Of a stretch of DNA of 64,000 nt, positions 19,295-56,119 are shown piece after piece. The notes under the pieces were generated by a model, which ran no database searches, had not been told where the DNA came from, and saw only the letters and a list, made by a program, of their open reading frames with translations. Made by a program: the position numbers and the translations under genes. This DNA is from Massospora cicadina (taxonomy: Eukaryota > Entomophthoromycota > Entomophthoromycetes > Entomophthorales > Entomophthoraceae): the NCBI GenBank assembly GCA_022478985.1, contig JAKSZP010000008.1, positions 186,001 through 250,000 of the forward strand, read 5' to 3'. Within the stretch, counting starts at the first letter, position 1; the number at the start of each line of letters is the position of its first letter.

Positions 19295-19297
19295 TAA

Positions 19298-19344: not shown

Positions 19345-19357
19345 GAAGTGATTTCTT

Positions 19358-23814: not shown

Positions 23815-25731
23815 GCCAAATATCATTCCACTTGGCGTAACTTTCCAAGCAAAATTACATAAATTAATAAAACAAATCCAAATAACCCATTGTAGTTTTG
23901 CTCCAATGCCCCTGGATTCTCCACCAGCTGCTCCAGCGTGGGGCAGCGGAGAAACTCCCCACACCATTTTCCATCCATCAGGATAACGCGCTAGGACTGG
24001 TTCACCCAGTCATTCCAAACCCATAATATTTTGTTCCTCCCAAGGACCTTGACGCCCACCTTGCTCATACCCAAGTGGTACCTCGCTGCCCCCTGGTGCT
24101 CCCCTGGAGCAACATGTGCTACAGCCTAAGGGTTGAATATGGGAAATTATTCCCATACCATGACCAAACCATTATCAAAATGGCACAGGCGGTTATGAGA
24201 CCTACCAGATTTATAGATTTCTGCCCCTACAAGGGGTATTTCAAGCTCAGCTTCACCTGCAAAGCTGACGCTGCCACTGAAGAACTGTGCCCCTAGTATT
24301 ACAGGGCACCCCTCTCCCCACAACTCAGACCTGGCTCGCAGATGACACCACTTTGGTGGTCCAGTTTGCTGGTTTGGCCACCCGCCTTCCCCCTGAAGTG
24401 CTCCACCAGGAGCTGATGGACGGTTTGGCAATCTATGGCTCCAACCCCTTCTTACAATTTGTGGTCCCAAATGGGGCCACATGACTCGCTGGGCCTTAGG
24501 CATATGCATGATCAGCCCTGAATTTAATAAAATTGCCATGTCACTTCCCCTTGCACCGTTATTCCCTCAACGCCCAACCATCCATTTTGGGCCCATGTTG
24601 AGGGCGGGCAGACAATCTGTCTGTCATGTTTCAAGTTGGACTACTCAAAATTCAAGTACCCCTCATTAGCCACTTCCAATGGATTGTATGACTCATCCAC
24701 TGATCTTAATCCACTGCCCACCCTGTACAAGTTCCAGTATGGGGCACAATCCTACCTCCACCACCCCCAAAACTGGAAGCTGCTGCTTCACCTGCAGCCA
24801 CCAATCAGCCTCCTCCTCGCCCCAATGCCACAAATAATTCCTAAATCAAGAATCAGATTAGATCCCAGTTTGATCCCATGATCCACAAATGAATCAATCA
24901 AACCTCAACCGTACACTGATTGTTCAATCAAATTCAACCAAAACTCATGGGAGTTATTAGCTGAAATTGACAAAACAGGTAAGCTCATTGAAGAACCATC
25001 TCTGAAAATTGAGCGGTTTGTTAATGCAGAATGGGATGCCAGATACCCCCCTCAACTATATACCCCACAGCCAAGTGCCAAATTGTTTGACCAGTGATCA
25101 CCAGCTTGCAATCAAAAATGCTGCAATACCAGATTGTTGTCTCCTTTGTAAAGCTGTCACCAAATCAGTGGGGATGCTCACAGGAGGAATTACACCTCCT
25201 GTTATTTCCTCAACCCTCACCCCAAAAAGTATAATCACAGCGGACCAGCTACACAAAAATGTTATGATGCTATCCAGAATGTGGCAACTATAACACAGAA
25301 CCTAAGGGCAAAAATTACCTGAACCAACATTGCCACGTTCATTAAACTCCCAGACGCCTGCATCAAAGCTGAAAAAGCTTTAATTGAATGTCAGTGCCAT
25401 TTACCTAGCTGGCAATTTCCATGAAATTCCAATTATTAGAGATATTTTATCACATGTCACAGATGCCCCAACGCCCTTACTGTCTGCCGTGACATGCACT
25501 CTACTATGGGAGAATCAAGCTGCTGCCAAAGATGATCCCCCAACCCCCCTCCCCTTCTGCCATTGAGGGATAAGAGGTTTTTGATACCTGGTTGGTTGTT
25601 TTTGAAGCATTTCACACAATCTGCTCATTTGGGTGTTTTGTTTTGCTTTAATTAATTAAGTTAGTTTTTAGTTTAGTTTTAGTTTTGGTATTGTCCATCC
25701 CCTGGTCAGCTTACCTCAATTAAATATAATA
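23815..25731 (+). mobile_element. ORF1-only retroposon, copy 1 (1917 bp)
   Basis: Bordered by a 14-bp duplication taaaaatt[t/g]atcta (23801-23814, 25732-25745; one mismatch). It aligns along its length with the minus-strand copy at 53418-55697, whose length after removing two later insertions is about 1.93 kb. It holds one decayed LINE-type ORF1 and no endonuclease or RT. The 3' tail (cccctggtcagcttacctca, 25699-25718) matches that of LINE-B. This looks like a half-LINE parasite that keeps the RNA-binding protein and borrows the rest. Confidence 0.8.
23906..25563 (+). pseudogene. ORF1 of ORF1-only retroposon, copy 1
   Basis: The start is ATG 23906 (MPLDSPPAAPAWGS), which aligns with MSLDSPLDAPVWGS in copy 2. 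Readable parts: 24075-24296 (RCPLVLPWSNMCYSLRVEY), 24287-24484 (DDTTLVVQFAGLATRLPP, HQELMDGLAIYGSN), and a zinc knuckle at 24618-24659 reading CLSCFKLDYSKFKYP, where the third and fourth ligands (His, Cys) are both Tyr, each explained by one transition. The C-terminal part around 24960-25560 has a helical, coiled-coil-like run (AIQNVATITQNLRAKI). Stops and frameshifts break it. The architecture matches LINE ORF1 proteins. Confidence 0.65.
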
Positions 25732-25779
25732 TAAAAATTGATCTAACTACACATTTATTTGATTTAATAATGAAAATAA

Positions 25780-25826
25780 GTTTTGGTAATGTCTGTCCCT
25801 TTATCTGCTTGCCTCAAATAAATAAA
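25780..25826 (+). repeat. Isolated second copy of the LINE-B-type tail
   Basis: About 45 bp (ttttggtaatgtctgtccct then tctgcttgcctcaaata) resembles the last 45 bp of the ORF1-only retroposon that ends 50 bp upstream. It is probably a severely 5'-truncated insertion. I could not fix its target duplication in the AT-rich flanks. Confidence 0.45.
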
Positions 25827-25831
25827 ATAAA

Positions 25832-26785
25832 GAGAATAAAAATTTGTTTTAATTTTTAGATATTTTTTTAAATTAGAAAGGATTGTTTTTGTAATTGGCT
25901 TTTTTTCTGCTATATACAATCCTTAATTGTATTGTTAAAAATACAGATACAGTCATGAGCAAATAATGATTATGCTGGACAAAATTTTTTGATTTTTGTT
26001 TATTATAAGAATGATAACAGCTAAACCTTAAAGGTTTTGATGCTGAATTCAAATATGTAAATGTTTTCTTTCTATTGGGCATAATTTTTTTGCAATTACA
26101 ATTTTTGAAGAATGTTTATCATACATAATGTACTTTCAACATACCTAAAATCTGCTTCATTTTGATTTTTTGCATAGTGTGTTATTGTGTTTAAATAATA
26201 AAATTATCTGTTGGATATTAATGAACTGAAAAAAACTAATAGATATACAGTTTAAATAACAACATAAATTTTGTAAAAAGTAAATTAATGTCATATATAT
26301 TGAACTTGCATAGTTTGTGCCCATGTACTTTCTAGAGAAGTAAGAAGGGCAATTACAAAAAAATTGAGGCCAATAGGGAATTTCTGACTTCATATTCAGA
26401 ATCAATGCTCAACTGTACATAAAGTTCAGAAAATATTAACCATGTAACAAAATCATTGTTGTCCAGTGTTATTAATCATAGTAGTGATCAAATATAATTA
26501 AAGATACTATTTGCACTTGAGTAGATTACATAATTGTTGTGACAACGTAAAAGTGATTTAGAAGCATTATAAAACTTGCCAAGAAGTTTATTAGTAGTGT
26601 TGGTCCTATGTCCCTCTTACCTCTAATAAACAAACCTAGAAATTCAACCTAGAAAATTGATCATCAGCGTTATTTAATTCAAGCTTATCAAATCACATTC
26701 TACTTTATAAAACACATTTACTGACTGATTAATGTACTGACTGACATCTCAAAATATTTGAGTCTGATACATAAATCAATTTTAG
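25832..26785. other. AT-rich spacer without recognised features
   Basis: Strongly AT-rich, low-complexity DNA. The minus-strand frames 25873-26082 and 26157-26405 (Phe/Tyr/Asn/Lys-rich) have the composition expected from AT-rich noise and show no family motif. I annotate nothing here. Confidence 0.4.
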
Positions 26786-26941
26786 GTGAGTGAGTGAGAA
26801 TTGGCATTTATTAACTAATAATTCACCAATTTGCTCACCCAAAACTAATTTAATTGATTATTATAAGTTAATTGTTTTGGGCGAGTGGGTGAGAATTAGT
26901 GAGTATATTGAATAACTCACCAAATTGATCACCCAAAACTA
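26786..26941. repeat. Direct and inverted repeat cluster, hairpin-forming
   Basis: Two units of about 75 bp repeat in tandem, each made of a gtgagtgagaattgg / gtgggtgagaattag half and an inverted ctcaccaa-ttg-tcacccaaaact half. The end halves (ctcaccaaattgatcaccca) are near-complementary to the starting halves, so each unit can fold back. It could be a small MITE-like element or part of a Helitron body. No target duplication was identified. Confidence 0.4.
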
Positions 26942-27081
26942 AACAAAAATCAGACATTTTGATTAGATTAAAAAAGTTAGGTAATCAGCTCACCAGCCAT
27001 TAAGGCAACAGTGAAGCTGTTATTCCAATTGGCTCAAGAATAGCGTTGGCACAGCCTATAGGCTGTCAGTGTGAGCTTATC

Positions 27082-27562
27082 ATCTGATAAACCATAAATA
27101 CCATACTAAGCATGGGTATCTGGATGTTTTGTATATATAGCTTTAAAAAACATTCCCAATTCCCCTAATTAATAAGATACTTTTGGTAAATTATATAGAA
27201 GTTGATTAGTAGTTTGTAAAACATATCACATAGACAATGACTAATTATGTAGAGAAGTTTTTGTGTAGCAGTTTGATGTATCTGATTGGTTCAATAGGTT
27301 TATTTTGTTTGGCCAAGTTGTTGATGGCTTTTGGTCAAATGAATAGGACGCAGTTTAGTTTTAAAGGTAATTAGTTATTGGTTGATTAGATAAGTTCAGT
27401 TATGTTTGGCTGAGTGGCTGGTGAGTTTTGGTTGATTTGATTAAGCAATTAGATTTTGATGAGTGGTTATTATTTATTTATAATAAAATAAAATCTAAAT
27501 TAATAAATACTAATATCTAGAATTCTATAGTCACCATAGTGAAGCATGGGTATTGAATGGCT
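27082..27562 (+). mobile_element. Helitron-like 3' ends, two in close succession
   Basis: Two copies of a terminal motif also seen at the end of the 29494-31284 Helitron: ccatactaagcatgggtatc near 27094-27114 and caccatagtgaagcatgggt (27532-27551) followed by attgaatgg and CTAG-T (27559-27563). Each can form the short GC hairpin followed by C-T-R-R that marks Helitron 3' ends. The DNA between them (27250-27480) has the same TTGG/GGTT-rich body as 30040-30260. I cannot place the 5' ends and see no Rep/helicase. Confidence 0.45.
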
Positions 27563-27811
27563 AGTTATAGCATAAATATTCTTAACTTGAGAAACAAAAC
27601 CTACTTCCTAATTTGTAAATTTGCTTTGAGATTTATAGGGTATGAGATGGTTAGCTTAAATCTATTATATTCAATAATACGATATCATATAATTGTATAA
27701 TTTTGTTAAGGTTTAAATTATTAAGAAATGTTATCCTATCTATACTAATTTGGATAATAGGGATAATAATAGTATAATTGATAAGAAGTTATGGAAGTAT
27801 TAAAATTATTA

Positions 27812-27857
27812 CTTCGATGAATCCCCCTTGGGTTGGGACCATCTAGTACTAAAAAAA
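27812..27857 (+). mobile_element. 46-bp LINE-A tail insertion with 18-bp duplication
   Basis: The 46 bases equal the LINE-A 3' end (19299-19344) with one C/T difference. They are bracketed by a perfect 18-bp duplication gaagtattaaaattatta at 27794-27811 and 27858-27875. Target-primed reverse transcription aborted after about 46 nt is the simplest explanation. Confidence 0.9.
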
Positions 27858-28828
27858 GAAGTATTAAAATTATTATTAAATCATATGGATATACAACTGA
27901 AGTATTAGCTTAATATTCTCGAATCATCTAGAAAAAATTATCACAATGGATTTACTCTTCCAGACTTTCATGCAGAATTATTTTGAAACTTGTAATGAAT
28001 AATATGATAAGGTTTCATCTAATGAAGCACTCTCATGCAAGTCAGACAGTTGGTCTAGGCCCTTATCTGTTTTTGGCTGTGGTAGGGTATATAAGCCATA
28101 ATTGTAACTAATCTCTTACCATTAAATCCAGGAGTAAAGTAGTTTCTGACTGAACATTGAGATTATTGCCATGGCAGTGCCAAGTATGCCCCCAATATTA
28201 TGCTTCAGTAAAAGCAGCGCCAATATCATAAAATCAGGGAAGTTTATGAAGGAGAGTGATCTGCCCATGCTTACCAACTTAGGATTGGTTTTTAGTTCCA
28301 GCATGCCTCAAAAGCAATAGTGGAATTTTACTTGAAACTAGTTTTTTGGTATTAACTATATCATACTCACATTATCTAAAATTGCCGGCTTGACTTGTTT
28401 ATATTGGAAAAGAAGCCTCTCATGAAACAATTGATCATAATTGTTGGTCCAACGGTTTACTGGAATGTCATTATTCATATCACTAGCATTCATCTTTTTA
28501 GTACCAAATGGTCTAACCTGATATAGCAAGCATGCATTGATAATTAATTTTTTTTTTTTACTTTTAAATGAATGTTGAACCCATTGTATTTCGACTCGCC
28601 TCCCCCATTTCCGTCTGGTATATAGACAAACTAAAATTATATTTGAGTTTAAGGCAAACTCAAATGAAGTCTGGGATTCATTGCTCTTTCAAGTCAAAAA
28701 CGTTAAATTAATTATTATTATAAATAAAATACTCTTATAAATATATCTATTAAGTATTTATTTATTGGTTTAGCAAGCTATTATATTTTTATAAAATCAT
28801 TTTATTGAATTTAAAGCTTACTAATGGT

Positions 28829-28842
28829 CTAGTACTAAAAAA
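28829..28842 (+). mobile_element. 14-bp LINE-A tail insertion with 16-bp duplication
   Basis: ctagtactaaaaaa is flanked by aaagcttactaatggt (28813-28828) and aaagcttaataatggt (28843-28858), 15 of 16 identical. The insert is only the terminal tagtacta plus adenines of LINE-A, shorter than its own duplication. Confidence 0.75.
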
Positions 28843-28910
28843 AAAGCTTAATAATGGTATTTGACTTTAGCGTATAAATACTTGGGAAATTGATGTATGG
28901 ACAGGTTGGT

Positions 28911-28955
28911 GAATTCCACTAGGGTTGAGACCACTTAGTGGTAAAAAATAAGGTG
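28911..28955 (+). repeat. Diverged LINE-A-like tail
   Basis: tgaattccactagggttgag then accacttagtggtaaaaaat follows the same layout as the LINE-A tail (tgaatcccccttgggttggg, accatccagtactaaaaaaa). It is diverged and I see no convincing duplication, so it may belong to a related subfamily or be old. Confidence 0.4.
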
Positions 28956-29511
28956 ATGTTTGAATTTATTTTTGCCCTCCAGTTTTAGTAATATATTATC
29001 AAACTAAATGTTAAGAGCTTTCCCTGATACATTGCAACTTAATTTTATGATTTATAACATATGCATTCTCATTGCATTATATTATATGTTAAATAAAGAA
29101 TTTGTAAGAATATTTTATTTTTTAGATGTATTTAGTCAGAAATTGAGGATGGTGGATTATTTTTGTTACACTTAAGCTCACTTACAGATTCATTTGCATA
29201 CCTTCTTTAAAATTATTTAGTAGCTTTCTTTTTATATAAAAAGATAAAGATTTTCATGGTTACTATAAAAATTATCGTTCCATATGAATGATGGAATCTT
29301 AATTTCTTTCTTATTTATTTATTATAATCAGTACTATATAAAGAAAGTTGATAAACGTTTTTTATATTATTTTTAGTTAAAAATTAATAGATCTTATTTA
29401 TATGATTTCTATTAACCAGAGACAAAATGGCTTTTATATAATACTATATTAGCTTAACTATAAATAAGAAACATTTATATTTCTAATATTGTATCTATAA
29501 TAATAAAAGCA

Positions 29512-29800
29512 GGGGATGATACCCCAGTGGTAGATTATGTACCTCTACTACTACCTCCCCAAGTTCAATCCTGGTAGATGAACTTTGAATTAGGGACAAT
29601 TATGTCAGTGTTGGCGTTGAAACCAATGCCCCAAACCAAGATAGCAAATAGCAAGGCGGTCCATGGAGTTCTAAGCCTATCATATGCCATGCATGGAGGT
29701 TCTCTAGGTTTTATCCTCCTTTCCATTAATTTGATTCCCCTTCATCCTTCATCAGTGCAGTATCATCCCAGGTTGGCCCACCTCATATAAAATTTAAGAA
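29512..29800 (+). mobile_element. SINE-A copy 1 (289 bp)
   Basis: A perfect 16-bp duplication tataataataaaagca (29496-29511, 29801-29816) borders it. The tRNA-like head ggggatgataccccagtggt carries an A-box-like segment, and aagttcaatcctgg is a good Pol III B box (GTTCRANNC). The tail is cccaggttggcccacctcat followed by AT-rich DNA. The duplicated target is the 5' terminus of the Helitron. The frame 29578-29790 is incidental. Confidence 0.85.
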
Positions 29801-30287
29801 TATAATAATAAAAGCAAGTGTGTGCACATGTGTGTGCTTGTGTGCAATGCTTAGCAAAAGCTACAGCATGTAGAGCTTTGAATTTTTGGCTATGGGTGGA
29901 TGGGAGGGGTCCATGTGCAACTCAAAGCCAAATCTTTAAGTTTTATAGAAAAAAATAAAGCTTTTATATGTAAGAAGTGAACAATTTATATAACTTTAAA
30001 GGAAATTAGTATGTTGTTACAGATGAGCATTTTAATATTTGATTGATTTGATAGTTTAAATGGTTTTGCCAAGTAGTTGGTGGTTTTGGGTTGATTAATA
30101 AGCTTTATTGTTTTAGCAAGCAGTTAGTAATTATTTTATTTGATAATTTAATTGGTTTTGATTGGGTTGTTGGTGGATCTTTGTTGTTGGTTTGATGGGC
30201 TCAATGGTTTCAGGTAAATGGTTAATGTTTTAGTTAACTTGATAAGTTTAATTGGTTTGGTTGTGTGGTTGGTTTTTATATTTACAT

Positions 30288-30582
30288 TAGTAAATTTAAA
30301 TTGTTAAATTTTATTTGAGGTGGGCTAACTTGGAGATGATACTGCACTGATCTATGAAATCAAAGAAATGGGAAATGAGGATGAAACCTTAAAAACCTCC
30401 ATGCACAGTGTATTCAGGCCAGGAACTCCATGGTACGCCTTTATATCTTCTATCTTGGTGGGATGCAATGGTGCAGAAAACCAACACAGTTATATATCCC
30501 CTACCCAAAGTTCATCTACCAGGATCAAACTCAGGTAGGCAGTGGTAGAAAGTTTATACTCTACCACTGGGGTATACTCCCC
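30288..30582 (-). mobile_element. SINE-A copy 2, inverted (about 295 bp)
   Basis: The reverse complement aligns with copies 1 and 3. The head reads ggggagtataccccagtggt, the B box gagtttgatcctgg (GTTCGATCC with one transition), and the tail gcccacctcaaataaaattt. The candidate duplication tggtttttatatttacat (30270-30287) / tggtaattttatattacat (30583-30601) is imperfect, so the ends are approximate. Confidence 0.75.
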
Positions 30583-31777: not shown

Positions 31778-31787
31778 ATAATTTAGA

Positions 31788-32757: not shown

Positions 32758-32771
32758 AATTATCATATAGA

Positions 32772-32913: not shown

Positions 32914-32927
32914 AATTATCATGTAGA

Positions 32928-35340: not shown

Positions 35341-35381
35341 ATGTCTTAAAACCTCATTCTCCCAAAACCCATAACAAACCA

Positions 35382-35633: not shown

Positions 35634-35639
35634 AAAACT

Positions 35640-37008: not shown

Positions 37009-37222
37009 TCAGCGCATTTATTTATTTTTTTATTAAGGGAAGGCTGACCAGGGGATAGACACTTCTGATAAGACACTAAAAAATGAAACGAACTTCAGCG
37101 AGATGAGGGCACCCCAGAGAAGCAGATGCTATCTCCTGTTGCCAGTGGGAATGCCAAGAGAAGGAAGGGGGGTTACGTGTGCAGGGGCTTACGCCACTTT
37201 TGAGCACATATGTAGGAAGGGG

Positions 37223-37951
37223 TCAGAAACGATGAACCAAACCAGGAACCAGGATGAGACCATCTGGCGTCAACAGAGGTGGGAGGTACCCAAACATCCA
37301 CACTTGAAAGTGGACCACAAGGTGCGACTGGAACCGGTGTAGCGCTTCCTGGAGGGTGGGAGTGGAGCCTGAGATATCATCCAAGACAATCGTATGGATA
37401 GTCCACATAGCTATAGCAACTACTAAGGCGTGGAGGGAAGGTGGTAGAGGGGAAACCATAGATAAAGCAAACATGTCCTGAAACAGGCTGAAGGGATGTG
37501 CCTAATCCTAGCGAAATAGAGGTTGTACCTCACGCCATATTGCTTTTGATGGAGGGCACTCTATCAGGCGGTGAAACAACGTTCCATACTGGCCACACAC
37601 GACGCAAGATGAGTACAAAGCGTTAGAGCGCTTGGCAGTATGGTATACCCATCTCAAGCAGCGCCACACATGGGAACAAATATGAAGCTGCAGAAGAGGG
37701 TGGTGGGCATACTTCCATATGGCTTTCTGGGTATCTAGGGAGTAAGGATGTCCACCATGTCCAGGTAGTCCACCCTGGCTATGGTAGGGGACCTCATGGG
37801 TATCACTCCATTCAGAATGGGTAGTCCTTGTACTTCCTGGGTGAACTGAGAAGATGGGCACCCCTCTGGGCGGTGTGCCCACAGATGTGAATTCTCCACT
37901 CAGCGCTCTGTTTGGATAGAATGATTCATTTGAAGTGGGGCGACGTCCCAT
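37223..37951 (-). pseudogene. LINE-B ORF2 C-terminus with zinc motif
   Basis: The frame 37508-37951 contains AIWKYAHHPLLQLHICSHVW and CVVCGQYGTLFHRLIECPPS, a C-x2-C-x7-H-x4-C zinc-binding pattern of the kind that follows RT in LINEs. 37223-37474 continues with VVAIAMWTIHTIVLDDISGS, homologous to the LINE-A end. The frame between is broken by a stop. Confidence 0.78.
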
Positions 37952-38232
37952 GTGGGCCTGCAGCAGAAGGATGTGAGGCGAGATTTTTTAACGGAGAGTG
38001 GGGTGGGTAGGGTTGCTGAGGCCCAGGGCATGATAGAAGTTGGAGTGGGCCACGCAGGACCAGTGCTGGGCTAAGATCATAGGACTGGTGATGGCGGCGA
38101 TAAAGGTGACAAGGATTTTGGCATATGGGCCTCAAAGTTGAGCAGGCCCATACCACCACTATGGCGTGGGCCAAACAAGATATCCAGGCGCACCAGCAAT
38201 GGGCACAAAACAAAGCCACCCTGAAGAAGGGC

Positions 38233-39246
38233 TTATAATAACTTGAAGAAACAAGGGGAAAAAACGATGGCGTGGGCCCTAAACCAAACTTTAGAAAGGA
38301 GCATAGAGTTGGCTAGCACTATCCTGCCTGTAAGATAGTCTGGCGGGCTTTGATGGAAACTATGCGTTTTATAACGTTTTCTATCATATGGTTTTCCATC
38401 ACAGTTGAGGAGTACCCTCCCACCTCCAGCCACATCCCCAAATGGCGTACAGGGCCAACGGTGGTGTGTGGCACAAAGGGGAGCACAAGCGGGGAGGAGT
38501 GGGGTGGGCAGGGAAGGGCAAGCGATCCTGTGAGTTAGTTGATGAGGCAGGTAAAAAATGGGGTGCTGGGGCCCAGTGGGCTTAGTACCAACCAAGGAGA
38601 AAAATTTCGGTTTTGGAGGCGTTAAGTGCAGCATTATTTACCCTGGAGTAAACTTGGATAGTATCTTCAAGCGCGCGTGCATCATGATTGTTAGACACCC
38701 CAACCACACAATCATCAGCAAAAGCCAACATCTTGACTGGTGCTTGGCCTTGCACATGGACACCAGTAAGGCGAGCTATCACATTTTGAAGAAGTGGGTC
38801 AGGGCTGAGTGATACAAGAGTGGGCTAAGAGGGTCCCTTTGGCGTAGGCCCCTTTGAGGGCGGACTACATCCGTGAGGAAGCTAAGGCCACGCAAAGCCA
38901 TTGTGGTGGATTCGGTTAGCAACATCACACAATCAATGAAGTGAAGGGGGTGGCGGAACTTGTGGGAGGCTCTGAGGTATTTCCAGTTGACTCTATCATA
39001 GGCCTTCTGCTGGTCTAAAAAAACAAATGCTCCAGAAGCTGTGGATTGACATAAGTTGGCTACAGTGTTTATATTGTCCCAGATCGACCTTTTGGGGATG
39101 AAACCAAATTGTTCAGGGGAAATGAGAACATAGGCAACAACCCCTAGACGGCTAGCCATAATTGTAGTAATAAATTTTGTGTCTGTGTTAGTGAGTGAAA
39201 TGGGGCACCAGTTGGCCAAGTCCAGCTTATCCCCTTTCTTGTACAA
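38233..39246 (-). pseudogene. LINE-B ORF2 reverse transcriptase
   Basis: 38779-39246 shows DLANWCPISLTNTDTKFITT, FGFIPKRSIWDNINTV, FLDQQKAYDRVNWKYL and GLRQRDPLSPLLYHSAL. 38582-38782 carries KMLAFADDCVVGVSNN with both catalytic Asp intact, and 38233-38634 the thumb (TGRIVLANSMLLSKVWFRAH). Three frames are needed, so it cannot be translated as one protein. Unlike LINE-A, the active-site motif itself is undamaged. Motif A appears as FLDQQKAYD. Confidence 0.9.
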
Positions 39247-39398
39247 CGTTATTGTGAAGGCCTCTTACCCTCCAGTTAGTAGGCGCATTTCAATAAGGCA
39301 TTAGTTCAGAGAGGCAAGCAGCAAGGAGGAAAAATCTTGAATATTTCTTATAGAACTCATAAGGGATGCCATCTGGACATAAGCATTTCCTGTATGGT

Positions 39399-40503
39399 TG
39401 TCATGGAATTGGCAGAAAAGATTTAGACTGACCTTCCAGTCTGGATGTGTGAGTACCCAGAAAGGAAGCCAGAATGCCAGAGGCATTGCTGACTGTACGA
39501 CTTGATATGAAGCCAGGAAATATGATACTGTAAAGTGGTGGTACAACAACAAGGTGAGGATATCAAGAGAATTGGTAAAACCCACCCAGAGTGCGGGGTG
39601 ATGGGCCACCAGGGAAGTGCCATCTGGGATGCAGTCAGAAAGTGAAATAAAAATTTGGATTTCTTTTTGGTAAAATTTTATTGGGAAAAGAAAGTAAGAA
39701 AATCGACCAACAATTTCCTTAGTGCCATGCAACTGATTAAATAGTGGTCAATTAGGTAGTGACAGGATGGGGTCAGAATCCACAAATTCGACCTAACTGG
39801 AAAATTGTTCAGGAATGGGGGGTTTATTCTTTGGGAACTAACATCGCAAAATTTTGGCAGTGGGCCAGGTCTCTGTCAGTTCACCTCAACCATCCAAACC
39901 AGGGCTTAACTATGTTTCCGACGATTAGCATGATGGCATTTGGCCCAATGGGCGATGGGAATCCCCCAAGGCCATCCCTTATAGGGACTGGTCCATTTGT
40001 TTGGGAACAGGTTCAGGACAGCCAACCCGCCCGTGCTTGGTCATTTAACCATTCGTTCAGTCAACAGCAGCACATTGGGCGCAACGCCCAAATTACTATC
40101 CAAGGGCTTTGAACCCTCATTTAATGCACCCAATATTTGTTCAACTGGTTTGGGGATTGAATTGGAACCATCAGGCGATATAGCAGATATCTCATTCTTC
40201 ATGCTTTTACAGCCATTTAAATTTTTAGCATCAGCCAGATTGCCAGTCGAGTTAGATCCAACTGATTTCAATTTGGTAATTTTGGCACAGATTTCACTAA
40301 TTCCCCACAACAGTTCTGCTGAGGTAAGTGTGAGTATTGGGGGTGGGATCCAAAGCAGACGAGCTGTTACCCATCACTCATCTACTACATGAGCGAGGTC
40401 GCCCTGAGTGATGAGAGAGTAATGCCATCCTCTTCATGTCTTTTTATTTGGGAATGGGAAGATGACCTGATCAAGAGCCAAAGGATGTTCCCTGTGACTT
40501 ACA
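39399..40503 (-). mobile_element. Solo LTR of the element-II family inside LINE-B
   Basis: It begins tgtcatggaattggc and ends gtgacttaca, the same ends as the element-II LTRs, with about 320 bp missing internally (the segment corresponding to roughly 5950-6220). Flanks are atggt (39394-39398) and atgga (40504-40508), 4 of 5 identical. No internal region follows, so it is a solo LTR left by LTR-LTR recombination. It separates the endonuclease-RT linker of LINE-B from RT. Confidence 0.82.
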
Positions 40504-40554
40504 ATGGAGCACCACAAACAGCAGACCAGAGTTCATCCCGAGTAATCAGATTCA

Positions 40555-41265
40555 TTAACTCCAGAAAATGGGAAATGGTGCAGATATGTGCACTTTTGGG
40601 AAAATTATCCACTTTGGCTGGCAGAACTGGATCATATCAATATAATTTAAAGTATTAATTTTGTATTTCAATTGCCACTTCAGCCAGTGTATCCAAAATG
40701 GAGTGGTATGGATTTTGCACCTGTGTGCAGGCCAAGCTCTGGTGCGCTGCAAAAAATTTTGAAAAAAGTAAGTGGAACATGCATCACCCACTATTATAAG
40801 CTTTGCTTTATACTGAACACAAACCCGATGCTTGTGTTGTCTTACCAGTGCATTGAGGCAAGTGGACACTTCCGCCCTCTTGTGACCCCAAGCTAGGCTG
40901 TAGCCTGCAGTGGGGACATTAGACTCCAGGTAGTCCACTTCTGTCATCATATGCAAAATGACTTCTGAGGCAGCCCGCGAGCAACTGGAGGAGAGGTGGT
41001 GAGCCTGGCTTATTGTGTTCGCTTTGAAGGTTGACCAGGTGGAGATTGGGTCTGCACATAATGGTGTGGTAAACTCCAGAGCTGAGGTCACAGTTTTCAC
41101 CCACAAGGAAAATCTTGGCAATGTAATCTCAGTGGGGCAGAGTTTGCACCATTTTGGCGCCTGGGCCACTGGATTGGACAAATGGAAGGAAACTGATACC
41201 ATTCTGTGGTTAGATAAATTGATTATCGTTATGATAAAGTGGGAAATTTGGGATTGCAATTTCAA
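40555..41265 (-). pseudogene. LINE-B ORF2 linker between endonuclease and RT
   Basis: A 236-residue minus frame. AKLIIVGDACSTYFFQNFLQ matches the G-D-x-x-T-x-Y-F motif that typically precedes LINE RT. The remainder is low-similarity. The solo LTR lies directly downstream of this frame. Confidence 0.6.
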
Positions 41266-41300
41266 TGGCGCAAGAATAAGGTCAAAGCGGGTTATGGACC

Positions 41301-41910
41301 TTAGCTGCCATTGTGCAAATGGGGGTGAGATATTTTAGTGAGTAGCAGTGCATGATGTGGCAGAGTATCAAACAACCCTAGGGTGGCTTTGAGAACGCGA
41401 AGTTCAACATGCCCCTGTGGGGGTGTAGGCTTTAAGGGCCAGTGGTCTGTGGTTGGGTTTGTCCAGCGGTTTATGTCACCAACAACAAATGGGTCAGGGG
41501 GTAGTGGAAGGGAGGCGATGGCCAAGAAGAAGTCCCAATGATTTTGTGCACAGGTTGGGGCATATATGTTAACAACAGTGTGCACTTCATGGTCCCACAA
41601 AAAGGTGACTACAAGGATGCAGCCGTTAAGGTACAATTTTGTTGAAATAAATCTAAAACTATGGTTCAATTGAAAAAGCACCCCACAGTGCATAGACCAA
41701 AAGGAAGGGAAGGGAGGAGCATGGTTGCCCATGATTCCTCTTCACTGCACGGACAGTAAGTTTCCTTAATGGCCAGGATGTCCACAGGTAAATTATTTTT
41801 AAAAAACTCAGTTTCCTAGCCTGGGACAGTGAGGCCTTGAGTCCAGCAATGTTCAACGTCCCTAAAGTAAAGGCTCCCCCATTGCACCTTAGGTGCGAGG
41901 GGATGGGCAC
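41301..41910 (-). pseudogene. LINE-B ORF2 APE-type endonuclease
   Basis: The amino end is in 41659-41910 (AFTLGTLNIAGLKASLSQAR) and the rest in 41301-41732: FISTKLYLNGCILVV, VVNIYAPTCAQNHWDFFLAI, PFVVGDINRWTNPTTDHWPL with the G-D-x-N element. The overlapping frames show a frameshift between them. The terminal S-D-H motif is not visible because the frame ends early. Confidence 0.75.
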
Positions 41911-42230
41911 CCATGCCCTTCAGACTTCTCATTCTCAGCACGTCACTGCTTGGCAGCATGGGTAATCTGTGCTATGGAGTATGGTTTGGTATGGGAAGCT
42001 TTAGCTGTGAGGTTCGCGTTGGCTTTTGCCTTCTGCTTTTTCCCCACTGTGGGATGATTTTTGGCGTTGTGTGCACTTGTGATGCACCATCACATGAAGG
42101 TGGAATTTTGGCAGAATATTGCTGAGTAATTAGGTTCCAATCGATGCTTTGTAGCATTGGTTGGGTGAAATTGCTCACCCATTGGGTTTTCAGTTTGGGT
42201 GGCTTAGACAGATTGGGCGTCCCAATCTAT

Positions 42231-43340
42231 TTAGTGGAAGGATTTGTGAGCTGCTTCCACTGCAAATGTCTCGATCTCCTCCTGGAGCTGGCCTATTGGG
42301 ATCACAGATGTGGACTTAGCCGCCTCCTTGGTTGCCGCCTTGTGGGCCTGATTGGCCTTCTTATGCTCCCGTGGGGACACAGGTTTTACTTTAATGTAGC
42401 ATCCCTGCACTCCCCGCAGGAAGGCTGTGTCAGTGTCTACTGCCAGTCCATAGTGGGCATCTGCACCGCACATTGCTTCCAAGATTATTTCAGTTTGATT
42501 AATGCCCTCCTTGGTGGGGCAGGTTTGGTCCTTGTGGCCAAAAGCGCGACAGAAAGTGCAGATAGGAGGTACACTATTCATGGTGACTCTGAATGGGTGG
42601 GAGTCTTGCCCATTGATTTTGATAAAAGTGGTATATGGGATTTGGGTCAAATCTTCCACTATCCCCATGGACGGGATGAGAACAGCAATTTCTTTGCCTG
42701 TGCAAAGGCTTGGCATTAGCATAAAGCGCTGCATCTTGAAGGATTGGATTTCCCTATATTTGGCTAGCAAAGCCTTCAGGTGGTGCTCCATCATGTGCTC
42801 TTGACTGTAGTAGGTAGGAAGTCAAAAAATTACAAAACTTTGGTTTGATTTAGTCTATTGGGTGCACTTTGTTTTGACTAACCATTACCCATCAGGGAGT
42901 TCCACTACTACTCGCACTTTGCAGCTTCAAGACCACATCTTTGTTTTCAAATCTAAGATCCAGCCAACCATGAGGCATGGAGTGTGGTGTGACATACACC
43001 GAATTTGGGAAATGTGTGTGTACATCTCCACAAAACTTTTCTTAAAGAGCCTTTTGTTGAATATCCAGGAAAACATGCACCCTATGTTCCACCGATGATA
43101 GTGGTTGGGAGTGCGGCGTATTGATGAACTGGTTGCAGCACACTTTTCAGGCCAAAATTTCTGGGGAAATGGTAACCGCCAGTTTTTTACTATTAATTCT
43201 ATCTATTCCACCAGATTCGCCGGGGCGTTTATGAAACTTAAAGATGTGGGTCCTACACCTGTGCTCTTAACTTTACTCGCCCAACTGCTCCCCAACATTG
43301 GGTGCATACTAATCTCCTCGATGAGATTATAAAACTTACC
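42231..43340 (-). pseudogene. LINE-B ORF1 with CCHC knuckle
   Basis: 42231-42794 is an open 187-residue frame. LTQIPYTTFIKINGQDSHPF and VPPICTFCRAFGHKDQTCPT (C-x2-C-x4-H-x4-C, all four ligands present) are followed by an Ala/Lys-rich tail ending in QLQEEIETFAVEAAHKSF. Upstream, between 42800 and 43340, the reading is broken by several stops. The layout (basic domain, segment before the knuckle, knuckle) parallels the ORF1-only retroposons. Role: RNA binding in the LINE RNP. Confidence 0.75.
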
Positions 43341-43411
43341 TAAACTTGAATTAAATTAGTTGCAAAAGTGTTTTCAACGAGAAAGAAAAGTTTTCAGCGC
43401 ATTTGTTTACT

Positions 43412-50751: not shown

Positions 50752-50919
50752 TGTTAGGATTTTGGAATGCCCACATCAACCAGCGTTAATAGATTAGAAT
50801 GAAATGTCCATTTTAACCCGCTGAGGTTCTGTTTATAATAAAAAATCTATATTACATCCAAGAGTTATCACTAAATGGTAACTATTATTTGGGTTATTTT
50901 CCTATAGAGTATTTGTAAT

Positions 50920-52902
50920 TGTTGATGATTGTACATGGATCTTGTAAGTTTGGGAACTATGAGATTTGGGTATTTTGATGGTTGCAATTCTGTTATTCTG
51001 ATTTGGTTTCCTAATCAGGTCAGTAGCTGGATAATTGCTTAAATATATACATAAGTGCTGTCCGCTTTTTGGAGGCTTACCCTATTTGCAACAAGCTTCC
51101 AGGACACCGCTAATTCTGGAGGTTTTTATGCGCCTCAAGACTGACAACGCATTTAGTCTTTTAAGGTCTCATTACAAAGTGAGGTTGCTCCCAATGGACC
51201 TCACTTTGAAATTCCATTCCATACTTCAAGTTCACTTCAAATAAAGGCCACTATCACTAGCCTGGTACATTTTGATATACTTTATTATTGTATTTTATTT
51301 ATTTGAGAAGGTTGTTTTGGTGCAAATGGTGGTGCAATAGGAAGTGAGTAAGGGGGTGGACGTCCCGAGACTTTTTGGGGTGGTGATGCCCTAGTAGAGT
51401 GAAATACCCTACCCAGTGGAGGTTGTCTGGGGGAGCTTGTTAAAAGCTGTGGCGTAGGTGACCAGAGGCCAGCAGGACATTGATGTCTGCCACACCTCAG
51501 CCTGTGCCCATCCCTTTGGGATGGTGGTTACCAGAGTGGCCCTGAGGCAACAGAGGTCGGTGTGCTGCACCACAGCACGGTGTGCCAAGTGAGGCCACCA
51601 ATCCAGATAGGAGTCTTGGGGGTTTGGTACAGCTATTTTTCTTTCCCTAATGGGTGTGACACCCATCTGGGGGTTTGGGTTCAAAGCTGGTTGTGGGCTG
51701 GGCCTTGGGAGCCCTATCCCTTACATTATTCCAAAGTCAACCTTACCTTGGCGTGCTGTGGTTCCAGTCAGCCAAACTGCAAGATGGCCGTGGTCAATGT
51801 CTTAAATATCGCCATGGTCATTGAACCTTTTTGTTGGTTTGGAGAGCCCTTCCAACAAAGGGGATGGGGAGCTTGGGGGGTGGGCCAGACTGCTGGTGGT
51901 TGATGGACTCTTGTGCCCATTAGTAGACCCTCAGGGAACCCATTGAATTGATCTGGGGGCTCCGGATTTCCATCTGACTTCCCCATGATGCCCATAGAAA
52001 AAGGTCCCCTGTCAAAAAGTCATTGGTCACTGCACGCCTGCCTTGACAATCCAGGTTTGGATCCACTGGGATTCTCAATTCAAGGGTGTGATGCAGTGGT
52101 TGATGATCATACATAGATCTTGTAATTTTGGAAATTATGTGATTTGGGTATGTTGATTATTGCAATTCCGTTATTCTGATGCAATTTTACTAATTGGGTT
52201 AATAGCAGGATAATTATTTAAATATATAATCAAGTGGTTGTCCATTTTTGGAGGTTTTCCCATTCACTAATGAGTTATTGGGAATCCATTAATTCTGGAG
52301 GCTTTTATGCGCCTTATGACCAACAATGCATTTAGCCTCTTTATAATTATTTCAAAGTATGGTTGCTCCTGATAGACCTCACTTTGGAATTAAATTCTGA
52401 CCAACTTCAGCTTAAATAAAGGCCACTATTCGCTAGACCTGTTACATATAATATAATTTATTATTGTATTTTATTTATTTGAGCAGGTTGTTTTGGTGCA
52501 GATGGTGGTTCAATAGGAAGTGAGGAAGGGGGTGGACGTACTGAGATATTTTTGGGGTGGCGATGTCCTATCAGAGTGGAATACTCTGGCCCAGTGGAGG
52601 TTGGCTGAGGAGCTTGTCAAAAGCTGTAGTGAGGGTGACCAAAGGCTGGCAGGACATTAATGTCTTCCACACCTCAGCATGTGCCTATCCCTTTGGGAAG
52701 GCAGTTGCCAGAGTGGCCCCAAGGTGACAGAGGCTGGTGCGTCACACCTCAGCCTAGGTTGCCCAGTGAGGCCGCCTGTCAAGATAGGAGTCTTGGGGGT
52801 TTGGTTTAGCTATTTTCCTTTCCCAAATGGGAGTGACCCCCATCTGGGGGTTTGGGTTCATGGCCAGTGGCGGGCTGGGCCTTGGGAGCCCCTTCTATTA
52901 CA
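50920..52902 (+). mobile_element. Short non-coding LTR element (TRIM-like) with 806/805-bp LTRs
   Basis: Direct repeats 50920-51725 and 52098-52902 match over their full length (aatagcaggataatt/gctggataattgctt region, ttttatgcgcct, aataaaggccactat, ggaggttg, tcccttaca/tctattaca ends) around a 372-bp interior with no coding capacity. The LTR contains taaatatata followed 200 bp later by aataaa, consistent with plus-strand promoter and polyadenylation signals. It interrupts the 3' LTR of element III. The flanks gtaat / gttta do not give a clear duplication. The open frames inside are incidental. Confidence 0.75.
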
Positions 52903-53589
52903 GTTTAATCTATTTCACCATATTGTATTTTGATGGAATAATTAATGTCTTGTTGGGGGTGATCAGTGAAAATACTTTTAAGTAGTTTGCTCTTATTACA
53001 ATTATTAACAATTAAACTATTTTTATAAATTTATTGGGGTTTGATGCCAATTAATTAGTGTATTTCAGTTACTGAAACATTGAAAACGCTTGTATGAAGT
53101 TCCTTGTGGTTAGCCTGAAGTAATGCAACCTGCTACTAATGAATAAATGGTCCCATTACCTAAGCAGAATGCAAATTTCATAAGGTTAATCCGCTAGGGT
53201 TGGATAAAGGAATTGGTACATGATATATCTGATTCCAACTCATAACATATTATAACTAGTCAGAGGTGGATACTGACTGGGTAGATTAATGAGCAAGTGC
53301 ATTATACATTATTGGTGCAACTCGTTAAGTTTAAAATATATTAGCAACAGATGATATTCACATTGTAGTGCTAATGAAAATGTAGATGGAAAAATTTCCT
53401 ACTATCTAAACACCTTTTTATATTTATTTGAAGTAAGCATACCAGGGAACGGACATTACCAGAACTAAAACTTAAAACTAAATTCTAATACAAAAAACGG
53501 TTCAGACAAAAACGCCCAAGTGAGTTGATTGAATAAAACGCTTTGAAAATTCCAACCAACCAGGTGGGCAGCGGAAACTGCTTATCCCT

Positions 53590-55255
53590 TCATGGCAGAA
53601 GGGGAGGGGGATCAGGGGGCGCATCTTCAACAGCAGCTTTCTCCTCCCAGACTAGGGTATTTGTCAAGGTGGATAGTAAGGGCTCGGGGCATCAGCGGCT
53701 TGTGGTTCAATATCACTAATTATTGGTATTTCATGGAAATTGCCAGCTAGGAAAATGGCACTGATATATTTGGCTAAAGCTATTTCAGCTTTCATGTGGG
53801 TGTATGGGAGTTTAATGAACGTGGTGATATTGGTTCAGGTAATTTTAGCTTTAGGATTTTATGCTACCATTTTTACATTCTGGATAGCTTGTTTAAATTT
53901 TTGTGTAACTGATTCATTGTGGTTTTACTTTTTGGAGTAAGGGTTGAGGGGATCACAGGAGGGGAAATAACTCCTGTGAGCATCGCCACTGATCTGGTGA
54001 CAGCTTTGTGGAGGGGACAGCAATCTGTTGTTGCAGCTGCTTTGACTGCAAGCTTGGTGGTCACTGCAACATGATACGTCATTTGGCTGTGGAGTACATA
54101 GACAAGGGGGGTATTTGGCGTCCCAATCTGCATTAAAAAATCGCTCAATTTGCAGAGTTAGTTCTTCAATGAGCTTACCTGATTCATCGATTTCAGCCAA
54201 TAACTCCCATAGGTTCTGGTTAAATTGAATTGGATAATTGGTGTATGGTTGAGGTTTGGGTGATTCGTTGGGGGAAGCATGGGATCAAACTGGGGTCCAA
54301 GCTAATTCTTGATTGGAGGAATCATGTGTGTCACTAGGGCGAGGAGGAGGCTGATTGGTGGCTGCAGGTGCAGCTGCAACCTCAGGTTTTGGGGGAGGGG
54401 GAGGTAGGATCATACCCAATGCCAGAATTTGTGCAGGGTGGGAAGTGGATTGGAAGTCAGCGGATGAGAAATCTGATCCGTTGGAAGTGGCTAAGGAGGG
54501 GCACTTGTGTTTTGAGTGGTCTTACTTAAAACAGGATGGACAAATTGTCCACCCATCCTTGACGCGGGCCCAAAACAGATGGTCAGGGGCTGAAGGAATA
54601 ACAGCATGAAGGGGAATTGACACGTCAATTTTATTAAATTCAGGGCTGATCATGCATACTCCTAAGGCCTAGAGAGTCATGTGGCCCCATTTAGGACCAC
54701 AAATTGTAAGATGGAGTTGGAGCCATAGACTGCCAAGCCGTCCATCAGCTCCTGGTGAAGCACTACAGGGGGGAGGTGGGTGGGCAAGCCAGCAAACTGG
54801 ACCACCAAAGTGGTGTCTGCTGGGAGCCATGTCCGAGTTTTGGGAAGAGGTGTACCCTGGAATACCAGGGGCACAGTTGCTACAGTGGTGGTGTCAGCTT
54901 CACTGGTGAAGATGAGGTTAAAATACCCCTTACAGGGTGGAAATCTATATGATATGGAGAGTGTCATCACCAACTGTGTCATTTTGATAATGGCTTGGTC
55001 GTAGTATGGGAAGAGTTTCTCATATTTGACCTTTAGGCAATAGTGCATGTTGCTCCAGGGAAGCACCAGGGGGCAGCGAGGTACCGCTTGGGTGTGGGCA
55101 AGATGGGCGTCAAGATCCTTGGGAGGAAAAATCGTTCCATGGGTTTGGAATGACTGGGAGAGCCAGTCTGAGCATCTTTTCCTGCTGGACAGAAAATGGC
55201 GGGGTAGTTTCACGCTGCCCCACACTGGAGCATCCAGCGGAGAATCCAAGGACAT
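53590..55255 (-). pseudogene. ORF1 of ORF1-only retroposon, copy 2
   Basis: The best frame is 54677-55255 (192 residues): MSLDSPLDAPVWGSVKLPRH, LPWSNMHYCLKVKYEKLFPY, DTTLVVQFAGLPTHLPPVVL, LAVYGSNSILQFVVLNGA. After a stop the zinc knuckle follows at 54501-54542: C-P-S-C-F-K-stop-D-H-S-K-H-K-C, with all four ligands kept but an internal TAA. The C-terminal helical region is in frames between 53873 and 54200. The damage is complementary to copy 1, which lost the ligands but has no stop there. Confidence 0.7.
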
Positions 55256-55297
55256 TGGAGCAAAACTACAACATGCGATTGAATTTTACTTTCTTTT

Positions 55298-55590
55298 TTC
55301 AGTACTAGTGGTGACCGACCCAAAAAAGGGGGAGCCACACGCATCTTTATTTGTAAATGTGCCAAACAAAGGGATTGATATAAATTAAAAAAATTTCCTA
55401 ATATAGCCCCTAGGTTATCAGCCTAGGAAGCCATATCAGATGGCGAGGAGGCTTTGGGGAAACTTTTTTATGAAGCCTGCTTTAGCTGGAGGACCATGGC
55501 AGACAGCATTGAGGTGATAGCATCAGCGACATGGGGCATAAGGAGGTATAGTTGGGGGTTTACTTGGTTAATGAGGCCGCAGTGTCCAAG
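55298..55590 (-). mobile_element. 293-bp LINE-A-like 3' fragment
   Basis: On the minus strand it ends gtcaccactagtactgaaaa, a variant of the LINE-A tail, and its upstream part shows C-terminal ORF2-like reading (ITSMLSAMVLQLKQAS then stop). A 23-bp duplication (55275-55297 and 55591-55613, one mismatch, starting gcgattgaa) brackets it. It is a 5'-truncated insertion from a LINE-A subfamily, not the same copy lineage as 13273-19344. Confidence 0.75.
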
Positions 55591-55614
55591 GCGATTGAAA
55601 TTTACTTTCTTTTT

Positions 55615-55633
55615 TTTTAGTACTAGATGGTCA
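55615..55633 (-). mobile_element. 19-bp LINE-A tail insertion at the same target
   Basis: The minus strand reads tgaccatctagtactaaaa, flanked by the perfect 17-bp duplication aaatttactttcttttt (55598-55614, 55634-55650). Its left duplication is itself the right-hand duplication of the 293-bp insertion, so the two events hit one site in succession. Confidence 0.8.
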
Positions 55634-56119
55634 AAATTTACTTTCTTTTTAATTTGTGTAATTTTCTCAGAAAAGTTATTCCAAGTGGAAAGAGAGTACT
55701 ATATTAACACCTTTAATAACTTAAAAAAGATATTATAAACTTTTTCTAAAACCATTTAAATAGTTATACAAACTTTATCTGCACTTTTGATTAGTGTGGT
55801 AGAAATAGGTTTACCTTATATATTTGTCTTTGCTAACACTTGGAATTATAGTTAAGGTGATTGTTTTCAATTTTCCAACTTGTTCTTCAGTACCCTAGTA
55901 AAAGAATTGAAAGGATCATTTCTTTGTCCAGAAGTGCCTTCCATTTATCAAAAAAAGTGAGCGTCAGTATCTATATAGCTTTGATATTAAACAAATTGGC
56001 TGTGAAGAACTTAATAAGATAAGGTTTTTATTCATCTATAACTGTATTCATATTATTATTATTTTAACAATAACCCAATCACACGTAAAAAACTGTGTAG
56101 TAAACCTTGAAAGATTACA

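What the first reader, a model, noticed from the sequence alone, without database searches (positions are those of the whole stretch)
23815..55697. A family of ORF1-only LINE relatives (half-LINEs) with two dated copies
23815-25731 (+) and 53418-55697 (-) are the same 1.9-kb element. Each has its own 14-17-bp target duplication, a LINE-type ORF1 with CCHC knuckle, a LINE tail, and neither endonuclease nor RT. The lengths agree within about 10 bp once later insertions are removed, so the missing ORF2 is a feature of the family, not an accident of one copy. It parallels mammalian HAL1 (half-L1) but in what is probably a fungus. A retroposon that keeps the RNA-binding protein while borrowing the polymerase may compete with or assist its LINE.
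Basis: partly seen in the sequence, partly recalled or inferred. Interest (0 to 1): 0.82.

Follow-up and report, generated by a model that had tools for sequence, protein, structure and literature searches.

The report
ORF1-only LINE family in cicada fungus
In the giant genome of what is almost certainly the cicada fungus Massospora cicadina, an abundant family of jumping elements keeps only the RNA-binding protein of a LINE, lacks the enzyme that copies it, and ends in a small RNA hairpin shared with the genome's complete LINEs, so it probably borrows their enzyme.

Summary
The finding holds. Both window copies are decayed 1.9-kb elements with target duplications, in a 1.47-Gb assembly that is almost certainly Massospora cicadina. 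Of 76 best-scoring copies read, 72 reach the same 3' tail, 73 the same 5' end, and none was seen to lead into its own ORF2. Of 69 copies testable for target duplications, 44 beat the null 99th percentile, all 44 different. The common frame (about 560 codons, CCHC knuckle) was under purifying selection while the family spread: variants seen once have nonsynonymous/synonymous 3.6, variants in at least 7 of 70 copies 0.70; the signal is phase-specific and gone in the 3' UTR. The last ~45 nt are shared with ORF2-bearing LINEs (20 of 20 tails read); a 29-nt hairpin keeps its loop while two stem pairs have swapped both bases. Best reading: an ORF1-only LINE parasite that makes its own ORF1 protein and borrows ORF2 protein through this hairpin. 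HAL1 and HeT-A are the nearest known cases; new are the fungal host, the structured tail, the lineage-level selection signal and an ORF1 unlike that of LINE2. Expression, mobility and competition are untested; no copy examined has a stop-free frame.

The parts
23819..25732 (+). half-LINE copy A (ORF1-only element, decayed)
   Evidence: non-CpG terminal branch 0.059
23802..23818 (+). target-site duplication of A, 5' copy (17 bp, 3 mismatches to the 3' copy)
   Evidence: sequence; scored
25733..25749 (+). target-site duplication of A, 3' copy
   Evidence: sequence; scored
23906..25575 (+). degraded ORF1 reading frame of A, approximate end (stops and frameshifts; frame and extent inferred from the 70-copy alignment)
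24618..24659 (+). remnant CCHC knuckle in A (H and last C mutated to Y)
25687..25715 (+). 29-nt 3' hairpin of A (half-type stem), followed by A-rich tail
25778..25826 (+). solo tail of about 50 bp: probably a very short insertion of a LINE or half-LINE with the same 3' end
53418..55696 (-). half-LINE copy B, interrupted by later insertions at about 55275-55650
   Evidence: non-CpG terminal branch 0.086
55697..55714 (-). target-site duplication of B, 5' copy (18 bp, 2 mismatches; read by eye, not scored)
   Evidence: sequence
53400..53417 (-). target-site duplication of B, 3' copy
   Evidence: sequence
54680..55285 (-). longest open stretch of ORF1 in B (202 aa), up to the start of the RRM-like region
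54501..54542 (-). CCHC knuckle in B (all four ligands kept, one internal stop)
53432..53460 (-). 29-nt 3' hairpin of B
37018..43394 (-). LINE2: L1-like LINE with CCHC ORF1, RT and zf-RVT region, ending in the same tail (37027-37080, E=3e-6); carries a ~1.1-kb insertion

Best explanation
The two copies belong to an abundant family of ORF1-only LINE relatives. A 1.92-kb unit has a ~75-nt 5' UTR, one reading frame of about 560 codons for a LINE-type ORF1 protein (RRM-like region, CCHC knuckle, long C-terminal part), and a 3' UTR ending in a structured, A-rich tail. SHOWN by sequence: fixed ends, target duplications, absence of ORF2 in the copies read, purifying selection on the ORF1 of the source lineages, and a tail hairpin shared by compensatory change with ORF2-bearing LINEs of the same genome. 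INFERRED: its RNA is bound, preferentially in cis, by its own ORF1 protein, which is why ORF1 stayed under selection; ORF2 protein of an L1-like LINE (LINE2 type or the younger L033 type) recognises the shared hairpin in trans and inserts the copy by target-primed reverse transcription.
For: Own-genome searches: 35 of 45 listed matches to A (A itself included) and 33 of 41 to another copy (itself included) are full length (40 of 13248 and 40 of 11887 candidates scored). 72 of 76 distinct copies reach the same tail, 73 of 76 the same 5' end; of the 47 found by a protein query covering only the first ~200 codons, 43 reach it. Four copies whose match stopped early end in the same tail, no RT. TSDs: 44 of 69 above null 99th percentile, all different, 35 of 44 beginning with A. 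Selection with CpG-suspect columns removed: singletons N598/S159 (stops counted in N), codon positions 257/269/231; shared by >=7 copies N50/S69, positions 27/20/72; Fisher p=1.7e-15; in the two wrong phases shared variants are N106/S15 and N100/S16. It holds in the 28 DNA-selected copies (single 425/133; shared>=3 52/46, p=6.8e-6; shared>=5 11/29, p=6.7e-10) and is absent in columns 1763-1913. Tail: 20 of 20 LINE2-type 3' ends read carry it. Stem pairs 3 and 5 pair in 93.5% of cells in 69 half-LINE tails and 95.2% in 21 LINE2-type tails, but 2.2% when half-LINE 5' arms face LINE2 3' arms (44% the other way). A natural 394-aa frame carries an intact CCHC. ORF1 profiles of half-LINE and LINE2 align in register through the knuckle (hhalign probability 69.8, E=4e-5). 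The RTs of both window LINEs match human LINE-1 ORF2p entries at or next to the top among solved structures.
Against: None of 70 copies has a stop-free ORF1 in the common frame (minimum 1 stop, indels ignored), so no presently active copy is shown. Copies are the best-scoring ones, not a random sample, and 19 of them (L060-L078) were picked by me with a preference for long open frames. Pfam recognises no family in ORF1 above cut-off, and the structure model is too poor to use (mean pLDDT 35.6). The link to LINE2 ORF1 is weak: plain BLASTP E=0.029, profile probability 69.8 from few sequences. Half-LINE and LINE2 share no other DNA than the tail, so which LINE supplies ORF2 is inferred. The outer stem pair is weak (65% and 48% paired), sliding the LINE2 partner by one column still gives 69% pairing, and only two or three independent stem changes support the hairpin. 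Early-stopping matches not read downstream: C3659 and C3409, C3857, C10329 and C12733.
Confidence: 0.82

Rival explanations
1. The copies are repeatedly formed spliced or internally deleted products (SpIRE-like) of a full-length LINE that carries the same ORF1; the selection seen is that of the parent LINE.
For: The ends are those of a LINE; spliced L1 copies are known in humans (PMC5860796, passages read). The ORF1 of the L033-type LINE, the closest tail-sharer, was not read.
Against: No ORF2-bearing element with this ORF1 among 76 copies or 4 suspicious ones. LINE2-type elements with ORF2 have a different 5' end and share only a 34-nt tail match with the half-LINE at the DNA level. Copies up to 30% apart have the same 1.9-kb structure, so the structure is probably older than the subfamilies.
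Confidence: 0.1
2. The elements move as coding passengers: the tail alone suffices and ORF1 is only a relic, as in a long SINE or processed pseudogene.
For: Only the tail is clearly shared with the ORF2-bearing LINEs; the copies read are decayed.
Against: Third-position bias and low N/S of shared variants, absent from singletons, off-phase readings and the 3' UTR.
Confidence: 0.07
3. ORF1 selection was for supply in trans: half-LINE ORF1 protein helps or blocks the autonomous LINE (helper or competitor) rather than acting mainly on its own RNA.
For: Both share a tail hairpin, so they probably compete for one ORF2 protein.
Against: Nothing tested here separates cis from trans; the ORF1 proteins of half-LINE and LINE2 are far apart. 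For HeT-A Gag, cis preference is reported (PMC6114517, passages).
Confidence: 0.15

Closest known systems
HAL1 (half-L1), mammals
   Same: Non-autonomous L1 derivative that encodes only ORF1p and likely uses L1 machinery (PMC5753468 and PMC4161310, passages read).
   Different: Fungal host; structured hairpin tail; ORF1 only distantly like that of LINE2, whereas HAL1 derives from mammalian L1. Bao and Jurka 2010 was not held, so HAL1's own selection history is not compared.
HeT-A (Drosophila telomeric LINE), with TART/TAHRE as likely RT source
   Same: LINE with a Gag/ORF1 protein that likely depends on RT from TART and TAHRE and is the most abundant of the three (PMC6114517, passages; that HeT-A has no RT of its own is recalled).
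   Different: The half-LINE is dispersed with short target duplications, not in telomeric arrays; no host role is known.
L1-clade LINE/SINE pairs of the stringent type (plants, green algae)
   Same: A non-autonomous element shares a conserved 3' end with an L1-clade LINE; in maize and sorghum it forms a hairpin with compensatory stem changes (PMC3747384, passages).
   Different: The non-autonomous partner here codes for an ORF1 protein; SINEs do not code.
SpIREs (spliced L1 copies)
   Same: LINE copies lacking internal parts.
   Different: SpIREs are described as generally dead on arrival, with deletions in 5' UTR/ORF1 (PMC5860796, passages); the half-LINE is a lineage with its own subfamilies and keeps ORF1.

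Membership tests
HAL1 | encodes ORF1 only, no ORF2 | tested here: met
HAL1 | derived from mammalian L1 | tested here: not met
   fungal genome; ORF1 relatives found only in Massospora cicadina in two protein searches
HAL1 | tail is poly(A), recognised in the relaxed manner | tested here: not met
   conserved 29-nt hairpin plus short A-rich tail shared with local LINEs; that mammalian L1 recognition is poly(A)-based is from PMC3747384, that HAL1 follows it is recalled
HeT-A type telomeric LINE | Gag/ORF1 only, RT in trans | tested here: inconclusive
   ORF1 only: met; supply in trans inferred from the tail, not shown
HeT-A type telomeric LINE | head-to-tail arrays at chromosome ends | tested here: not met
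   dispersed copies with distinct target duplications; a few loci hold several copies
SpIRE / deletion derivatives | full-length parent with near-identical ORF1 | tested here: not met
   none among 76 copies plus 4 early-stopping ones; search not exhaustive
SINE of the stringent type | 3' tail shared with a LINE of the same genome | tested here: met
   20 of 20 LINE2-type tails read; compensatory stem
SINE of the stringent type | non-coding | tested here: not met
   about 560-codon frame under selection
SINE of the stringent type | small-RNA-derived head with pol III promoter | not tested
   no tRNA or Rfam search was run
LINE-type ORF1 protein | CCHC knuckle after an RRM-like region | tested here: inconclusive
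   intact CX2CX4HX4C in a natural frame; RRM inferred from position and weak profile match; no Pfam family above cut-off; structure model unusable
TPRT retrotransposon | short variable-length target duplications, A-rich 3' end, 5'-truncated copies | tested here: met
   TSD 11-25 bp in 44 of 69 copies; solo and truncated tails

The most novel reading that the evidence does not exclude
A long-lived ORF1-only LINE lineage, a few percent of a 1.5-Gb fungal genome by a crude estimate, kept its own ORF1 protein under selection and kept a tail hairpin able to capture ORF2 protein from LINEs whose ORF1 (in LINE2; that of the L033 type is unread) is now very different. That would make it a protein-coding parasite of LINEs with cis-acting ORF1 and trans-acting RT, and a natural separation of the two functions of a LINE in a stringent (hairpin-recognising) system.
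Probability: 0.55. Interest if true: 0.75.

Novelty: new variant of a known kind. Interest (0 to 1): 0.63.

Why it matters
Why LINEs need ORF1 when SINEs move without it is an open question. A family that keeps ORF1 under selection while living without ORF2 suggests that ORF1 serves the RNA that encodes it, independently of having ORF2 on that RNA. With a well-defined tail hairpin in two stem versions, the requirement can be tested directly. It also extends hairpin-recognising L1-like LINEs and ORF1-only LINEs to an early-diverging fungus and may explain part of the 6.3% L1 content reported for M. cicadina (PMC11105155, passages).

Tried and rejected
Structure prediction of the 202-aa stretch of B with five homologues: mean pLDDT 35.6, not used. 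First profile comparison of ORF1s discarded because one row, P0002, is a fused gene model that contains half-LINE sequence; repeated without it. BLASTP of half-LINE ORF1 against LINE2 ORF1 alone gives only the knuckle, E=0.029. The first selection count included CpG sites; recurrent CGA to TGA/CAA decay makes independent changes look shared, so it was redone with those columns removed. A 3-sequence tail alignment used wrong coordinates for one row and was dropped. In one search the row of B was set wrongly because of its insertions, and one search leaves B out. I considered that the recurrent in-frame TGA might be readthrough. At the five sites CAA, the other product of CpG decay of CGA, is found in 15-26 copies against 22-44 with TGA, and over all sites the two decay products are about equal, so decay is the likelier cause; at columns 1055 and 1505, where TGA is at least twice as common and CGA is nearly gone, a source copy with TGA is not excluded. 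A shared 5' end with LINE2 was looked for and not found. A sample of the genome for copy number could not be fetched; the flank-based figure (4473 of 106128 flank bases) is crude because the flanks adjoin known copies and about 1.2 kb of it belongs to two of the same copies (L040, L055). The upstream part of a young L033-type LINE was not obtained.
Full report
WHAT IS THERE. Copy A (23819-25732, +) and copy B (53418-55696, -) are the same 1.9-kb element at 79-80% identity. A carries a 17-bp target duplication with 3 mismatches, B an 18-bp one with 2 (sequence; A's scored, B's read by eye). B's extra length is two later insertions near 55275-55650 that end in a different, LINE1-type tail. Both copies are old and broken: the longest stop-free stretch on the ORF1 strand is 202 aa in B and 116 aa in A. 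On a 70-copy tree without CpG-suspect columns, terminal branches are 0.059 (A), 0.086 (B) and 0.040 (median) substitutions per site.

HOST. The window is contig 8, 186001-250000, of a 1.47-Gb, 16968-contig assembly. A protein search with B's 202-aa stretch gave six hits, all Massospora cicadina; one of them, P0006, lies on a contig of 77115 bases, the same length as a contig of this assembly. A second search with a 394-aa frame (7993 best candidates scored) gave two hits, both already in the first list. Published facts fit: a 1.5-Gb genome, 92% transposable elements (PMC9584336, passages), and 6.3% L1 LINEs, said to be unique among the entomophthoralean genomes compared (PMC11105155, passages).

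FAMILY AND ENDS. With A as DNA query, 45 matches were listed (40 of 13248 candidates scored); 35, A included, start at positions 1-24 and end at 1902-1917. With another copy as query, 33 of 41, itself included, are full length (40 of 11887 scored). I read 77 loci with a main copy, 76 after removing one duplicate and with A and B among them: 73 start within 25 nt of the same 5' end and 72 reach the same 3' tail. Of these, 47 were found with a protein query covering only the first ~200 codons (150 of 68190 candidates scored), so the 3' end could not influence their finding; 43 of 47 reach the tail. I picked 19 of the 47 with a preference for long open frames. The four that do not reach the tail (L033, L035, L049, L058) are interrupted: L033 by an inserted LINE, the others by sequence without tblastx similarity to LINE1 or LINE2. 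In one search seven matches stopped early at the 3' side; four were fetched (L101-L104) and all end in the same tail without LINE-protein similarity in the 0.5-0.6 kb beyond, a fifth is the copy in L068, already seen to reach the tail, and two (C3659, C3409) were not read. In one search three early-stopping matches (C3857, C10329, C12733) were not read. Lengths of 70 aligned copies are 1848-1954 bp. Target duplications were testable in 69 copies: 44 exceed the 99th percentile of mismatched flank pairs, all 44 are different, 11-25 bp long, mean identity 0.97, 35 of 44 starting with A (an earlier run gave 19 of 29). The other 25 copies do not pass that bar.

ORF1. In the 70-copy alignment one phase is open from an ATG at column 83 (66 of 70 copies) up to a stop in the tail at column 1913 (61 of 64). 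The only codons inside with stops in 30% or more of copies are CGA codons that decay to TGA and CAA; over 63 CpG sites the counts are CG 1522, TG 1272, CA 1183, TA 72, i.e. CpG decay without strand bias overall, though TGA exceeds CAA at four of those five codons. One natural copy has a 394-aa open frame with an intact CX2CX4HX4C knuckle. Of eight open half-LINE frames of 270-394 aa, Pfam gives nothing for seven and two zinc-finger matches far below cut-off (E=0.12) for one. A profile of nine half-LINE ORF1 sequences (seven locus frames, B's stretch, P0001) aligns with three LINE2-type ORF1 frames over 143 columns, knuckle in register (probability 69.8, E=4e-5), so the two ORF1s are probably distant relatives.

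SELECTION. Variants seen in one copy arose mostly after insertion; variants shared by many copies arose mostly in source lineages. With 350 of 1677 CpG-suspect columns removed, and counting codons one step from the commonest codon where that codon holds at least 40% of copies, singletons are N569+29 stops/S159 with positions 257/269/231; variants in at least 7 copies are N48+2 stops/S69 with positions 27/20/72; Fisher p=1.7e-15; N/S falls steadily with frequency (3.58, 2.31, 1.20, 0.97, 0.44); in the two wrong phases shared variants are N106/S15 and N100/S16. It holds in the 28 copies found by DNA alone (p=6.8e-6 at three or more copies, 6.7e-10 at five or more) and in the 42 found by protein (p=4.3e-14 at four or more). 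In windows along the element the third-position excess runs to column 1763, is weakest at 923-1133 (14/15/19, proline-rich stretch after the knuckle), and is gone at 1763-1913 (16/12/6), which serves as an internal control although that frame also stays open. Limits: best-scoring copies, no explicit tree model, recombination not tested.

TAIL. A profile of the last ~85 columns finds, besides half-LINEs, the end of LINE2 in the window (37027-37080, E=3e-6) and ends of other elements in flanks; upstream of the hits in L033, L047 and L052 lies LINE2-like ORF2. One search listed 151 LINE2-type ORF2 places (150 of 75612 candidates scored); I read 501-bp pieces beyond 20 of them, preferring long open frames, and 20 of 20 carry the tail (E 1e-10 to 1.5e-5). 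The 29-nt core folds as a 5-bp stem around a 19-nt loop. The half-LINE stem and the LINE2 stem differ at pairs 3 and 5 on both sides, yet those pairs form in 93.5% and 95.2% of cells (69 and 21 tails); pairing half-LINE 5' arms with LINE2 3' arms gives 2.2%, the reverse 44% (G-U). Over all five pairs 88% and 85% form; partners slid by one column give 34% for half-LINEs but 69% for LINE2, and the outermost pair forms in only 65% and 48%. The loop is nearly identical in both. Other elements show further stem versions. Outside the tail, half-LINE and LINE2 share no DNA at E 1e-3, and a 5'-end profile finds nothing better than E=1.8 in four LINE sequences. The LINE fragment in L033 shares about 60 nt of 3' end with half-LINEs at up to 85%, has a LINE2-like ORF2 C-terminus, and belongs to a young family: 39 other copies at 93-95% identity listed (40 of 2081 candidates scored). 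It is the best candidate for the enzyme source; only its last 303 bp were read. The RTs in the window match LINE-1 ORF2p entries among solved structures: for LINE2 the top hit, for LINE1 second to an entry named only RNA-directed DNA polymerase.

READING. It works like HAL1 and HeT-A but is a member of neither. The shared, compensating hairpin points to hairpin-guided recognition by the LINE enzyme, the 'stringent' mode described for some plant L1-clade LINEs and their SINEs (PMC3747384, passages). Not shown: expression, mobility, cis preference, any present activity. Literature: no paper held Massospora, LINE and ORF1 together; the listings on half-L1/HAL1 (7 of 7 and 12 of 42 papers shown) and on ORF1-only, non-autonomous or fungal LINEs (12 of 1586, 10 of 247 and 8 of 488 shown) show no title or abstract start describing such a family in a fungus; subscription papers are mostly outside that library.

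Noticed in passing
half-LINE copies genome-wide (L001-L078): Strong CpG decay, symmetric between strands overall (CG 1522, TG 1272, CA 1183, TA 72 over 63 sites), suggesting CpG methylation of repeats in this fungus rather than RIP.
   Followed up: partly
L033:3292-3594 (-): A young LINE family (39 other copies at 93-95% identity listed) whose 3' end is the closest match to the half-LINE tail among the ORF2-bearing elements seen; only its last 303 bp were read.
   Followed up: partly
window 13256-19365: LINE1, a second L1-like LINE with a 6-kb body, a target duplication and a different tail type (GACCATC.AGTACTAAAA).
   Followed up: partly
window 55275-55650; also 27837, 28828, 19324: Two successive insertions ending in the LINE1-type tail hit the same target inside copy B; the ~0.3-kb one may be a SINE or a truncated LINE. 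The same tail occurs elsewhere in the window.
   Followed up: partly
window 39399-40504 within LINE2; also 5867-7175 and 11774-13081: A ~1.1-kb segment absent from two LINE2 relatives (L099, L100) interrupts LINE2 and is related to a pair of direct repeats 5.9 kb apart (84-99% alike in parts), possibly LTRs.
   Followed up: no
P0002 and P0006 (Massospora cicadina gene models): Public gene models absorb half-LINE ORF1 pieces: P0002 seems to fuse half-LINE and LINE2 ORF1; P0006 joins a PF03665 gene to a half-LINE fragment.
   Followed up: partly
tails named L004_928_957, L016_2664_2700 and L066_402_430: A possible third tail version (GTATCRTCCCCAGGTC.GCCCACC) on unidentified elements; weak profile matches (E 0.011, 0.068, 0.56).
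   Followed up: no
half-LINE alignment columns 1763-1913: The ORF1 phase stays open through the 3' UTR and hairpin to a stop in the tail (61 of 64 copies), without a selection signal there; whether translation runs that far is unknown.
   Followed up: partly
window 20392-20949 (-): 185-aa open frame with a weak Retrotrans_gag match (PF03732, E=0.0022, below cut-off).
   Followed up: no
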